A DNA stretch of 64,000 bases, taken from NCBI GenBank assembly GCA_902562645.1, contig CACETY010000001.1:1-64000 (forward strand), written 5' to 3'. The stretch's first letter is position 1, and each line of letters starts with the position of its first letter. Shown piece after piece: positions 26,887 through 31,931 of the stretch. Position numbers and translations under genes: made by a program. Under the pieces are notes generated by a model, which saw only the letters and a list, made by a program, of their open reading frames with translations, was not told where the DNA came from and ran no database searches. The DNA comes from an uncultured Pelagibacteraceae bacterium. GTDB taxonomy: Bacteria; Pseudomonadota; Alphaproteobacteria; Pelagibacterales; Pelagibacteraceae.

Positions 26887-29103
26887 TTAAATTGTTCTTT
26901 CAGTAATTGTAGAATTATAAACTTCTATAATATCTTTTTTTTGATAGTCGGCGAAATCTTTCAGAGTGATCCCACATTCTAAACCTGCTGAAACTTGTTT
27001 TGTTTGATCTTTTTCTCTAAATATAGAACCTATTTTACCATTAAATATTATAGTTCCATCCCTTATTACCCTTGCACTTGAATTTTGAGTAATTTCTCCC
27101 TCAACAACTTTTGAACCAGCTACTTTCCCAACTTTTGAAACCTTGAATATTTCTAATATTTCAGCACTTCCAATAATTTTCTCTTCAACATCTGGGGTCA
27201 ATAACCCTGCCATCTTATTCTTAATGAAATCTAAAACTTCATAAATTATATTAAATGATGATATCGAAATTTTTTCATTCTCAGCCCTTTTTTTTGCCTC
27301 TTTACTAGGTTTTACATTGAATGCAATTATTACTGCTCGTGATGCTTTTGCTAAAGTTACATCTGTTTCTGTTACCATCCCTATATCTGAAAGAAGTATT
27401 TTTGGTTTTACCTCATCATGTTTAATTTGATCGATAGCATTTCTAATTGCCTCTGACGAGCCATGTACATCAGATTTAATAATTATATTTAGCTCTTCTG
27501 AAATTGAATTTTGAAATGCTGAGTCTTGTGTAACAAAATTTAGTGGTATTTTTTCATCTTTTGACTCTTGAACCCTAGCTTCACATAGTGATTTAGCCTC
27601 TTTTTCAGTTGGCAAAACTATAAAATCATCTCCAGATTTTGCTGCACCATTAATACCAATTATCTCTATTGGAGTAGCAGGCTCTGCAATTTCAATGTTT
27701 TTTCCATGATCATTTATAATTGCTCTTATTTTTCCCCATTTCAATCCACTAACAAAGTAATCTCCTTTTTTTAGAGTTCCAGCAGTAACAATTATATTTG
27801 CAACTGGTCCCCTTCCGATGTCAATTTTTGATTCTAAAACTATACCTTTTGCATTTGTTTCAAAATCAGTTTTCAAGTCTAATAGCTCAGCCTGTAACAA
27901 AATAGACTCGACTAACTTCTCTAAATTATTTTTAGTCTTAGTAGATATTTCTACCATCAAAGTATCGCCAGATAATTCTTCGGCTATTAATTCATATTCT
28001 AGCAATTGATTTTTTATTTTTTTTGGATCTGCCTCTGGTAGATCACACTTATTTATAGCTACAACTATTGGTACTTTTGCAGCCTTTGCATGTTTAATTG
28101 ACTCAACAGTTTGTGGTTTAACTCCATCATCTGCAGCTACAACCAATACAACAATATCTGTAAGCTTAGAACCTCTTGCTCTCATCTCAGTAAAAGCAGC
28201 ATGCCCTGGGGTATCAATGAATGTAATTTTATTATTTTTGTGATTGATTTGATACGCTCCTATATGCTGAGTAATACCACCGAATTCACCTGAAACTACA
28301 TTTGCCTCTCTTAGAACGTCAAGCACAGAGGTTTTTCCATGATCAACATGACCCATAACAGTTACAATTGGGGGTCTATTTTTTAAATTTTCTGATTTTA
28401 CTTCTTTTATTTTTTCTATTATTTCCTCAGCTTTTTTCTCTCGAATTGGATTATGGCCAAATTCTTTAACTAAATATTCAGCCGTATCTGCATCTATTGT
28501 ATGATTTATTGTTACTGTTACACCCATTCCGAGTAAGTGCTTAATAATGTTACTTGATTGCTCGGCCATCCTATTCGCTAGCTCTCTTATCGTTATTACC
28601 TCAGGAAGGTTAACTTCTCTTTTTACTTGTTGAAAATTATCTTTACTATCTGTTTGGTTTAAATTTCGGTTTTCTTTTTGCTTAGCTCTTTTTAAAGATG
28701 CTAAACTCCTTGATTTTGCCTCTACATGATCTTCACTTAAAGCTCTTGAGATAGTTAATTTTAACTCTCTCCTTTTATTAACAATTTTATTAGATTTATT
28801 ATCTTTTTGTGGAGCTTCTCCTTTCAGTCTTCTTGTAGCTCTTTGCTCTGCTAATTTCCTTTTCTCAAAATCTGAGGAAGGTTGTGTTGATTGCCGGGAG
28901 AAATTGTTTGGTTTAGAAGAAATATTATTATTTGATCTAAAATTATTATTACTTTGTCTTGAAAATTGAGATTTTCCCGCAAACTTTGAGTTTTTTTTCT
29001 CAATAACAACAGTATTTTTAGACTTTGATTTGGCTTCCTCTATACTACTAAAAGTTTTTTTTGAACTTCCCGATATTGACAATTTTAATTTTTTTTTTTC
29101 CAT
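26887..29103 (-). CDS. infB: Translation initiation factor IF-2
   Basis: A 738-residue protein. A basic, Asn/Ser-rich N-terminal extension (about 150 residues) precedes the IF2_N segment VITIRELANRMAEQSSNIIKHL. The GTPase domain has GHVDHGKTSVLD, DTPGHAAFTEMRARG and NKCDLPEADP, followed by domains II to IV. It delivers fMet-tRNA to the 30S subunit. It lies between nusA (10-nt gap) and rbfA. The ylxR gene often found between nusA and infB is missing. Confidence 0.98.
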   Translation of the reverse strand: MEKKKLKLSISGSSKKTFSSIEEAKSKSKNTVVIEKKNSKFAGKSQFSRQSNNNFRSNNNISSKPNNFSRQSTQPSSDFEKRKLAEQRATRRLKGEAPQKDNKSNKIVNKRRELKLTISRALSEDHVEAKSRSLASLKRAKQKENRNLNQTDSKDNFQQVKREVNLPEVITIRELANRMAEQSSNIIKHLLGMGVTVTINHTIDADTAEYLVKEFGHNPIREKKAEEIIEKIKEVKSENLKNRPPIVTVMGHVDHGKTSVLDVLREANVVSGEFGGITQHIGAYQINHKNNKITFIDTPGHAAFTEMRARGSKLTDIVVLVVAADDGVKPQTVESIKHAKAAKVPIVVAINKCDLPEADPKKIKNQLLEYELIAEELSGDTLMVEISTKTKNNLEKLVESILLQAELLDLKTDFETNAKGIVLESKIDIGRGPVANIIVTAGTLKKGDYFVSGLKWGKIRAIINDHGKNIEIAEPATPIEIIGINGAAKSGDDFIVLPTEKEAKSLCEARVQESKDEKIPLNFVTQDSAFQNSISEELNIIIKSDVHGSSEAIRNAIDQIKHDEVKPKILLSDIGMVTETDVTLAKASRAVIIAFNVKPSKEAKKRAENEKISISSFNIIYEVLDFIKNKMAGLLTPDVEEKIIGSAEILEIFKVSKVGKVAGSKVVEGEITQNSSARVIRDGTIIFNGKIGSIFREKDQTKQVSAGLECGITLKDFADYQKKDIIEVYNSTITERTI

Positions 29104-29113
29104 TACCCATCTT

Positions 29114-30667
29114 TCAATCTTTATAAACTTTGTCTCTTGCTGACATTATTAAATTATCAGCCTCTTGTTTAGATAGCGCAAAGTCTTCCAGATATCCTTT
29201 AATTTTAACTCTCTCTCCTTTAATTATATCAAAAGTTCCTGTTAATTCATCAGATGCAAGATCTGCCAAATCTATTAAAGTCAAAACTTTTTGTTCTCCT
29301 AAAGTTACAAGCATTCCTGGTGTTAGTCCTTCGTGGTTAATCAAATCATTCTCTAGTCCAAGATCTTTGATTCTTTTTGAAATTTCTTCTTGATCTTTTT
29401 CATGAAATTCTTTTGCTCTTTCAACAAGTTCTTTAGCCGTATCTTCTTCAATACCCTCGATTTTCATTAGTGATTCTAGTGAGCTATCTTTGATTTCATC
29501 AATTGAGGAAAAGCCTTCGGCAACTAAAAGTTGGCCTAAAGTTTCGTCAAGTTCAAGATTTTTTACTATAGAGTCAGTTTTTTCTTTGAATTCTAATTGT
29601 CTTCTTTCAGAGTCCTCTTGCTCTGTCATAATATTAATTTCATAGTTTAATAATTTTGTTGCTAATCTAACATTTTGCCCTCGTCTACCAATAGCTTTAC
29701 TTAGATTCTCTTCAGTCAAAATAACATCTAGTTTTCTTGCTTCATTATCAACATTAACTCTTTGAACTTCTGCTGGTGATAATGCATTAGCTGCTACAAC
29801 AGCTGGATCCTCAGACCAATTAACTATGTCTATTTTTTCACCTTGTAGCTCGTTTACTACAGCCTGAACTCTACTACCTCTCATACCTACACATGCTCCT
29901 ACTGGATCTAATGATGTATCAATAGCTTTTACACATATCTTTGCTCTACTACCTGGGTCTCTTGATGATGATTTAATTTCAATTAATCCATCATAAATTT
30001 CTGGGACCTCCTGTATAAAAAGTTTATCCATAAATTTTGGATGCGCTCTTGAGAGAAAGATTTGTTGACCTCTAGGTTCCCTTCTTACATCAAGACAATA
30101 AGCTTTAACCCTATCACCAGCTTTAATATTTTCCCTTGGTATCATTTCATTTTTTTGAATAATTGCCTCTGTTCTCCCTAAATCAACAATTACATTTCCA
30201 AACTCAAGTCTTTTTACAATTCCACTTAAAATAGTATCTTTTTTATCAATAAAATCATTGTATTGTCTTTCTCTTTCAGCTTCTCTTACATTAAAGCTTA
30301 TTACTTGCTTTGCAGTTTGTGCTGCAATTCTTCCAAAATCAAAAGATGGCAGTGGCTGAAGAACCTCATCGCCGATTTTCTTATCTTTATTAACTTGATT
30401 TAACTTTATTGCATCTTCTAAAGTAATTTCTAGGTTTGAATTTTCTGGTTTTTCAACTATTAATAATTTCCTAAATATTCCTATGTCCCCGTTGTCTCTG
30501 TCAATTTCTACCTTTATTTCATTATCTGATCCAAATTTCGACTTCGCAGCTTTAGCAATACCTGTTTCCATTGAACCTATGATAAGTTCTTTATCAATAG
30601 ATTTTTCTAATGCTACAGCTTCTGCGATTCTCAATAATTCTAGTTTATCAGCTCTTCTATTTAACAT
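29114..30667 (-). CDS. nusA: Transcription termination/antitermination protein NusA
   Basis: A 517-residue protein with an N-terminal RNA-polymerase-binding domain, an S1 domain (DTILSGIVKRLEFGNVIVDLG), two KH domains (GACVGMRGSRVQAVVNELQGEKIDIV and LSKAIGRRGQNVRLATKL) and two C-terminal acidic repeats with helix-hairpin-helix character. It modulates pausing, intrinsic termination and rRNA antitermination. It is the first gene of the nusA-infB-rbfA-rpsO-pnp string. The usual upstream rimP is absent. A promoter and a terminator-like hairpin lie in its 100-nt upstream region. Confidence 0.97.
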   Translation of the reverse strand: MLNRRADKLELLRIAEAVALEKSIDKELIIGSMETGIAKAAKSKFGSDNEIKVEIDRDNGDIGIFRKLLIVEKPENSNLEITLEDAIKLNQVNKDKKIGDEVLQPLPSFDFGRIAAQTAKQVISFNVREAERERQYNDFIDKKDTILSGIVKRLEFGNVIVDLGRTEAIIQKNEMIPRENIKAGDRVKAYCLDVRREPRGQQIFLSRAHPKFMDKLFIQEVPEIYDGLIEIKSSSRDPGSRAKICVKAIDTSLDPVGACVGMRGSRVQAVVNELQGEKIDIVNWSEDPAVVAANALSPAEVQRVNVDNEARKLDVILTEENLSKAIGRRGQNVRLATKLLNYEINIMTEQEDSERRQLEFKEKTDSIVKNLELDETLGQLLVAEGFSSIDEIKDSSLESLMKIEGIEEDTAKELVERAKEFHEKDQEEISKRIKDLGLENDLINHEGLTPGMLVTLGEQKVLTLIDLADLASDELTGTFDIIKGERVKIKGYLEDFALSKQEADNLIMSARDKVYKD

Positions 30668-30682
30668 ATTTTATCTTTAGCC

Positions 30683-30709
30683 AAAAAAAAATGGGCCTCA
30701 GCCCATTTT
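30683..30709 (-). terminator. Intrinsic terminator-like hairpin between metK and nusA
   Basis: On the minus strand AAAATGGGC-TGAG-GCCCATTTT forms a perfect 9-bp stem with a 4-nt loop, extended by five more T. This is a textbook rho-independent terminator. It can end metK transcripts. Because a promoter lies between metK and the hairpin, it also sits inside the leader of nusA and could work as an attenuator. Confidence 0.85.
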
Positions 30710-30733
30710 GAAATTTCAACAATGTTCCTGAAA

Positions 30734-30761
30734 TATATAGTTATTTTTTATTGGTTTTCAA
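30734..30761 (-). promoter_or_regulatory. Predicted nusA operon promoter upstream of the hairpin
   Basis: On the minus strand TTGAAA (30756-30761) and TATATA (30734-30739) are 16 nt apart. The implied start near 30727 lies upstream of the terminator hairpin at 30709-30683. The 10-mer ATTGTTGAAA covering the -35 recurs 42 bp downstream (plus-strand TTTCAACAAT at 30714-30723 and 30756-30765), which may be an operator pair. Confidence 0.5.
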
Positions 30762-30767
30762 CAATAT

Positions 30768-31931
30768 TTACTTGCTAAAAACCTCAGATTTATCAGTTTT
30801 TTCCCATGAAAATGATCCATCACTCTCAGGCACTCTTCCAAAGTGTCCATAAGCTGCTGTTTTTTCATATATAGCTTTATTCAATCCAAGCATTTCTCTA
30901 ATACCTCTTGGGCTTAAATCAAAATTCTCTTTGATAAGTTTTTCTACATGCATATTTTTTTCTTCATCATTATCAAACAAGTCTACGTATATTGATAGGG
31001 GCTTTGATACTCCAATTGCGTAAGCTAGTTGAATTAAACATTTATCTGAAATTTTTGATGCAACAATATTTTTTGCTAAATATCTTGATGCATAAGCAGC
31101 TGATCTATCGACTTTTGTTGGATCTTTACCGGAAAATGCACCTCCTCCATGTGGTGCGGCTCCACCATAAGTATCAACAATAATTTTTCTACCTGTTAAA
31201 CCACTATCCCCGTCAGGTCCACCTATTACAAAATTTCCAGTAGGATTTATGTAAATTTCCTTTTCATTAAGACTTCCTAATAAATTTTGAGGAATAGATC
31301 TTTCTATGTAAGGCATGCAAAGCTCTTTGACTTGTGCTAAGCTAACATCTTTGGAATGTTGGGTAGATATAACTACTGATGTTACAGCTGCAGGCATACC
31401 CTCTTTATATTCAATAGTAATTTGACTTTTTGAATCTGGTTCTATTCCATTTAGCTTCCCTGATTTTCTATCTTCAGCCATCAATCTTAAAATTTTATGT
31501 GAGTAATGAATTGGGGCTGGCATTAAAACATCTGTTTCATTACAAGCGTAACCAAACATAATTCCTTGGTCTCCAGCGCCTTCATCTTTATTTCCTGCAG
31601 AATCTACTCCCATAGCGATATCAGCTGACTGTGAGTGTAAATGAGTTTCAATTTTTGTCTGTTCTTTCCAAGAAAAACCATCTTGATCGTAGCCTATATC
31701 TTTAATACAATCTCTTACTTTTGAAATTAGTTCATCTTCTTTAAGTTCAGGTCCTCTTACTTCTCCAGCTAATACAACTTTGTTTGTTGTTGTTAAAGTT
31801 TCACAAGCAACTCTTGCTTCGGGCTCTGATGCTAAAAAAGTATCCACAACCATATCTGAAATTCTGTCACAAACTTTATCTGGGTGTCCTTCTGACACTG
31901 ACTCACTCGTAAATAAGAAATTTTTCTTCAT
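30768..31931 (-). CDS. metK: S-adenosylmethionine synthetase
   Basis: A 387-residue protein with the MetK signatures [32 protein letters not shown] and [19 protein letters not shown]. It makes SAM from methionine and ATP. The start overlaps the lnt stop (ATGA). In many Alphaproteobacteria an HTH gene lies upstream and trmB downstream; neither is here. Confidence 0.98.

What the first reader, a model, noticed from the sequence alone, without database searches (positions are those of the whole stretch)
30668..30767. Possible NusA-responsive attenuator in the leader of the nusA-infB operon
The sequence shows, in order on the minus strand, a promoter-like TTGAAA-N16-TATATA, a perfect 9-bp hairpin followed by a T-tract, and the nusA start 16 nt later. 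The hairpin is therefore downstream of the promoter, not only a metK terminator. A 12-bp palindrome TTGAAATTTCAA adjoins the stem, and a 10-mer (ATTGTTGAAA) is repeated 42 bp apart. NusA is known to modulate intrinsic termination, so a terminator in its own leader suggests autoregulation. The regulatory part is inference.
Basis: partly seen in the sequence, partly recalled or inferred. Interest (0 to 1): 0.62.

Follow-up and report, generated by a model that had tools for sequence, protein, structure and literature searches.

The report
SAR11 nusA leader with conserved terminator hairpin
In SAR11 ocean bacteria a short, strongly conserved stop signal for RNA polymerase lies between the promoter and the start of nusA, a gene that helps polymerase stop; it looks like the self-limiting switch known from other bacteria, kept here although rimP, the gene that switch normally precedes, has been lost.

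Summary
On the minus strand, between metK and nusA, lie TTGAAA-N16-TATATA, a perfect 9-bp hairpin with T9, and nusA 15 nt later. The 12-bp palindrome and the 10-mer repeat exist but are not conserved. The window is from Pelagibacteraceae (SAR11). The hairpin was found at the head of nusA in all 118 order genomes examined, with exactly nine T in 117. In the genus a promoter-like TTGWWW-N16-TATAWD precedes it in 79 of 80. GGGC-N4-GCCC plus T occurs once per genome. The stem shows compensatory changes outside an invariant GGG/CCC core. It is not a metK terminator. In other alphaproteobacteria the same hairpin lies between trmB and rimP-nusA. SAR11 has lost rimP (0 of 58 order genomes) and the window's genus also trmB, yet the hairpin stays with nusA. 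It matches the published 'rimP-leader' attenuator (GGGc...gCCC) but without rimP, so RimP cannot be the regulator here and NusA becomes the best candidate. NusA-stimulated termination in its own leader is established in B. subtilis. An attenuator is about 85% likely; NusA feedback about 60%, untested. This is a new variant of a known kind.

The parts
30756..30761 (-). -35-like hexamer TTGAAA
   Evidence: TTGAAT/TTGAAA/TTGTAA/TTGATT at the same place in 80 of 80 genus leaders
30732..30739 (-). -10-like element TATATATT (TATATA with a 16-nt spacer; TATATT in relatives)
   Evidence: TATATT in 75 of 80, spacer 16 in 77 of 80, 26-28 nt from -10 to GGG
30714..30725 (-). Conserved block ACATTGTTGAAA at and just after the predicted transcription start (about 30725, inferred)
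   Evidence: Column conservation; ATTRTTGA in 66 of 80; start site inferred from -10 spacing
30688..30709 (-). Terminator hairpin AAAATGGGC-TGAG-GCCCATTTT, 9 bp, GGGC/GCCC signature
   Evidence: -10.8 kcal/mol; pairing and compensatory changes; once per genome
30683..30691 (-). T9 tract of the terminator (its first four T also form the stem)
   Evidence: Exactly nine T in 117 of 118 order genomes
29114..30667 (-). nusA: NusA_N, S1 and KH domains; first gene behind the leader
   Evidence: Pfam
26887..29103 (-). infB, second gene of the operon; rbfA, rpsO and pnp follow
   Evidence: Pfam for infB and rbfA; gene order
30768..31931 (-). metK, upstream neighbour; not what the hairpin follows in relatives
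   Evidence: Pfam; trmB lies between metK and the hairpin in other SAR11 genera

Best explanation
A transcription attenuator of the nusA-infB operon. RNA polymerase starts about 7 nt after TATATT and makes a leader of about 40 nt. It then meets a GGGC/GCCC hairpin plus U9 just before the nusA ribosome-binding region, and a fraction terminates there (inferred). When NusA is plentiful it binds the polymerase and the nascent hairpin and raises termination, lowering its own synthesis and that of the operon genes behind it; when it is scarce, read-through rises (inferred from B. subtilis, not shown here). Shown here: position, promoter-like motif, conservation, stem covariation, uniqueness, and retention with nusA after loss of rimP and trmB.
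For: Hairpin plus T9 between promoter and nusA in all order genomes examined and in 80 of 80 named Pelagibacteraceae genomes. One GGGC-N4-GCCC-N-T6 site per genome in 37 of 41 genus genomes, 0 for the reversed pattern; the sites listed for genomes with known nusA coordinates lie at nusA. Covariation: 15 cells with two-sided changes against 5.8 in shuffles, 94.4% of cells paired, falling to 26-62% when the partners are slid. In the class the same hairpin lies 62-218 nt upstream of the RimP_N match in 15 of 30 rimP loci, with one hit elsewhere, and in L193 the order is metK-trmB-hairpin-rimP. RimP 0 of 61 genus and 0 of 58 order genomes against 50 of 58 in the class, so RimP is not needed. Literature: rimP-leader with NusA proposed as regulator; B. 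subtilis NusA autoregulated by NusA-stimulated termination in its 5' leader.
Against: No transcript ends, read-through or NusA response could be measured. The motif is in only about half of the class rimP loci, and of seven RimP-negative class genomes outside the order only G175 has it at nusA. Nothing in the sequence identifies NusA as the ligand rather than another factor; no known NusA RNA-binding site was recognised. Conservation of a terminator alone would also fit an unregulated partial terminator.
Confidence: 0.6

Rival explanations
1. Unregulated partial terminator: a fixed fraction of transcripts stops, setting the basal nusA-infB level or insulating the operon from metK read-through, with no sensing.
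For: No antiterminator conserved across the order; stem energy is nearly constant (-9.5 to -13.1 kcal/mol in the genus), and the T tract is fixed at nine, as expected for a set efficiency.
Against: Plain terminators do not need an invariant GGGC/GCCC core; here that sequence is kept across the class and is nearly unique to this operon. In B. subtilis the equivalent leader is regulated by NusA.
Confidence: 0.22
2. Attenuator controlled by another factor (for example NusG, transcription-translation coupling, or a genus-specific weak upstream hairpin acting as antiterminator).
For: Genus leaders can form a weak upstream hairpin whose 3' arm overlaps the terminator stem (mean z -0.72).
Against: The upstream hairpin is absent in other genera, the other family and the class (mean z about 0); the only element kept throughout is the terminator itself.
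Confidence: 0.1
3. The hairpin is simply the 3' terminator of metK.
For: In the window it lies 58 nt after the metK stop.
Against: In other SAR11 genera trmB lies between metK and the hairpin; in the class the hairpin stands before rimP-nusA; a conserved promoter lies between metK and the hairpin.
Confidence: 0.04
4. Translational element: the hairpin and U9 shape ribosome (S1) access to the nusA start.
For: The T tract ends only 8-16 nt before ATG in the genus.
Against: In class rimP loci the hairpin lies at variable, larger distances, and the literature gives 4-130 nt; the architecture is that of an intrinsic terminator.
Confidence: 0.04

Closest known systems
rimP-leader attenuator (Naville and Gautheret 2010, PMC2965389)
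   Same: Short terminator with the unusual conserved GGGc...gCCC stem and T-stretch in the 5' leader of the nusA-infB operon, specific to it, without a conserved antiterminator.
   Different: rimP is absent from the whole order, so the leader directly precedes nusA; T tract fixed at nine; the paper does not describe it for SAR11 (Pelagibacter is mentioned there only for rpsL).
B. subtilis NusA autoregulatory attenuator (Mondal et al. 2016, as reported in PMC12288461)
   Same: Intrinsic terminator in the 5' leader of NusA's own transcription unit, limiting transcription into the gene.
   Different: NusA dependence is experimental there and untested here; the B. subtilis leader is 180 nt and precedes rimP (ylxS), here it is about 40 nt and precedes nusA.
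E. coli metY-rimP-nusA-infB leader terminators t1/t2 and Rfam RF01770
   Same: Terminators before the nusA-infB operon, which NusA is reported to repress (references cited in PMC2965389; PMC6511841).
   Different: The gammaproteobacterial tandem form; the window scores 16.9 bits against a gathering cut-off of 47.

Membership tests
rimP-leader (Naville and Gautheret 2010, general form) | Terminator stem with GGGc...gCCC followed by a T-stretch | tested here: met
   GGGC-TGAG-GCCC plus T9 in the window; GGG/CCC in 118 of 118 order genomes
rimP-leader (Naville and Gautheret 2010, general form) | Lies in the 5' leader of the operon carrying nusA and infB | tested here: met
   15 nt before nusA, followed by infB and rbfA
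rimP-leader (Naville and Gautheret 2010, general form) | rimP is the first gene of the operon | tested here: not met
   RimP_N 0 of 61 genus and 0 of 58 order genomes; hence filed as a rimP-less variant, not as a plain member
rimP-leader (Naville and Gautheret 2010, general form) | Signature specific to this operon in the genome | tested here: met
   One match per genome in 37 of 41 genus genomes; in the class 15 of 22 matches lie at rimP or nusA
Rfam RF01770 rimP (gammaproteobacterial) | Score at or above the gathering cut-off of 47 bits | tested here: not met
   16.9 bits, E = 2; no gathering-level match
NusA-autoregulated attenuator (B. subtilis type) | Intrinsic terminator downstream of the promoter and upstream of the nusA operon | tested here: met
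   Conserved promoter motif and hairpin in fixed geometry; the promoter is inferred from sequence
NusA-autoregulated attenuator (B. subtilis type) | Termination in the leader rises with NusA | not testable with these tools
   Needs in vitro or in vivo read-through measurement
metK 3' terminator | Directly follows metK across relatives | tested here: not met
   trmB intervenes in other genera and the other family; in the class the hairpin precedes rimP

The most novel reading that the evidence does not exclude
SAR11 carries a minimal NusA feedback attenuator: after rimP was lost, selection kept the GGGC/GCCC-U9 terminator with nusA. This natural gene-loss experiment separates the leader from RimP and makes NusA the sensed product, in a genome where strong intrinsic terminators look rare (two in the 64-kb window).
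Probability: 0.55. Interest if true: 0.6.

Novelty: new variant of a known kind. Interest (0 to 1): 0.5.

Why it matters
The published rimP-leader left open whether RimP or NusA is the regulator. An entire order that lacks rimP but keeps the leader in front of nusA answers half of that without an experiment: RimP is dispensable, and the leader follows nusA. It would also be a rare regulatory RNA of core transcription in SAR11, among the most abundant bacteria in the ocean, and it gives a short leader template on which NusA-dependent termination can be tested directly.

Tried and rejected
(1) Palindrome TTGAAATTTCAA and the ATTGTTGAAA repeat as functional parts: rejected, kept in 22 of 80 and 4 of 80 genus leaders. 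(2) A conserved antiterminator: the weak upstream hairpin of the genus does not recur elsewhere. (3) metK terminator: rejected by synteny. (4) Rfam membership: no family reached its cut-off at the leader; weak hits are chance level. (5) Meyer et al. 2009, the survey of structured RNAs in Pelagibacter (PMC2704228), contains neither nusA nor metK. (6) A paper search for SAR11 with nusA and terminator found only one unrelated genome paper. (7) A first strand-blind count of stem pairs mixed orientations and was replaced. (8) A first MAFFT alignment (A1) misplaced loop gaps; the pair count uses A2, with arms anchored on GGG/CCC and loops masked. (9) My notebook entry says 16 of 30 class rimP loci; the recount is 15 of 30.

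Full report
What is there. On the minus strand between metK (stop 30770-30768) and nusA (ATG 30667-30665) lie TTGAAA (30761-30756), 16 nt, TATATA/TATATT (30739-30732), a conserved ACATTGTTGAAA block, the hairpin AAAATGGGC-TGAG-GCCCATTTT (30709-30688) and nine T (30691-30683). Pfam confirms NusA, MetK, IF-2 and RbfA. The best database relatives are Pelagibacteraceae, at 87-99% NusA identity, so the genome is SAR11.

Chance. A promoter match alone is worthless in this A+T-rich DNA (57 found, 54 expected). A perfect stem of at least 6 bp running into T6 or more is rare: two in 64 kb against 0.25 per simulated window. The other, at 58813-58790, follows a porin-like gene and looks like an ordinary 3' terminator.

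Conservation. The metK-nusA gap was read in 80 genus genomes with both genes on the stretch. TTGWWW-N16-TATAWD occurs in 79 against 0.6 expected in shuffles; the spacer is 16 nt in 77 and the -10 to GGG distance 26-28 nt in all. The flanks between these blocks vary, which is an internal control. The hairpin was found in 87 of 87 genus, 7 of 7 other-genus and 24 of 24 other-family genomes, with exactly nine T in 117 of 118, and in 80 of 80 named Pelagibacteraceae records, which partly overlap the first set. The pattern GGGCNNNNGCCCNTTTTTT occurs exactly once per genome in 37 of 41 genus genomes and never in the reversed control.

Structure. Over 34 distinct stems, 94.4% of cells pair. GGG/CCC never varies. 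The pair two steps outside it is G-C in 19, A-U in 11 and G-U in 3; the next one in is U-A, U-G or C-G. Two-sided changes occur in 15 cells against 5.8 in shuffles (0 of 500 reach it), and sliding the partners destroys pairing. These counts use hairpins found by their GGG/CCC core, so the core's invariance is partly by selection of the set; in the order, however, every genome examined has it. Related sequences make the shuffle figures indicative only.

Ancestry. In the class, RimP is present in 50 of 58 genomes. Of 30 rimP loci, 15 have GGGC-N-GCCC plus T 62-218 nt upstream of the RimP_N match and only one such site lies elsewhere. A stricter genome-wide pattern gave 22 matches in 19 class genomes, 15 of them at rimP or nusA, and none for the reversed control (with coordinates). 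L193 shows metK-trmB-hairpin-rimP. In the window's order RimP is absent (0 of 58; 0 of 39 nearly complete genomes). Some genera and the second family read metK-trmB-hairpin-nusA, while the window's genus and genus g5 read metK-hairpin-nusA, without a TrmB match at that place. The simplest history is that the hairpin stayed at the head of the operon while rimP and then trmB were lost (inference from synteny; convergence of the stem is possible but less likely).

Mechanism. An intrinsic terminator between promoter and first gene is an attenuator by architecture. The regulator is inferred. The 2010 description of this leader named NusA as best candidate and RimP as an alternative; B. subtilis NusA is reported to be autoregulated by NusA-stimulated termination in its 5' leader (primary paper not held). 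SAR11 lacks RimP, which removes that alternative here. No conserved antiterminator was found across the order, in line with direct protein control.

Limits. Nothing was measured. Half of the class rimP loci lack the strict motif. Of seven RimP-negative class genomes outside the order, one (G175, L206) has the hairpin at nusA and six were not found to have it. RimP absence is by Pfam PF02576 only; a very divergent RimP could be missed, though the same model finds it in most of the class.

Verdict. Observation confirmed; attenuator reading well supported by comparison; NusA response plausible, known elsewhere, untested here. New variant of a known kind.

Noticed in passing
order-wide: RimP, a 30S maturation factor present in most alphaproteobacteria, has no Pfam match in any of the SAR11 genomes sampled.
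   Followed up: partly
metK-nusA interval, 30668-30767: trmB (tRNA m7G methyltransferase family PF02390) lies here in other SAR11 genera but has no strong match in the window's genus or g5; only weak cross-matches remain.
   Followed up: partly
58813-58790, minus strand: The only other strong terminator hairpin of the window (10 bp, T8), directly after a porin-like gene at 59772-58837; looks like an ordinary 3' terminator.
   Followed up: no
30725-30707, minus strand: Genus leaders can form a weak hairpin (CAUU.UUGA...UCAAAAUG) whose 3' arm overlaps the terminator stem; not seen outside the genus.
   Followed up: partly
L206 (G175), 25 nt upstream of nusA: A genome of another family of the class, also without a RimP match, has metK-trmB-like-hairpin-nusA with GGGCCTAAAGCCCATTTTTTTTT: possibly a second case or a sister lineage.
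   Followed up: no
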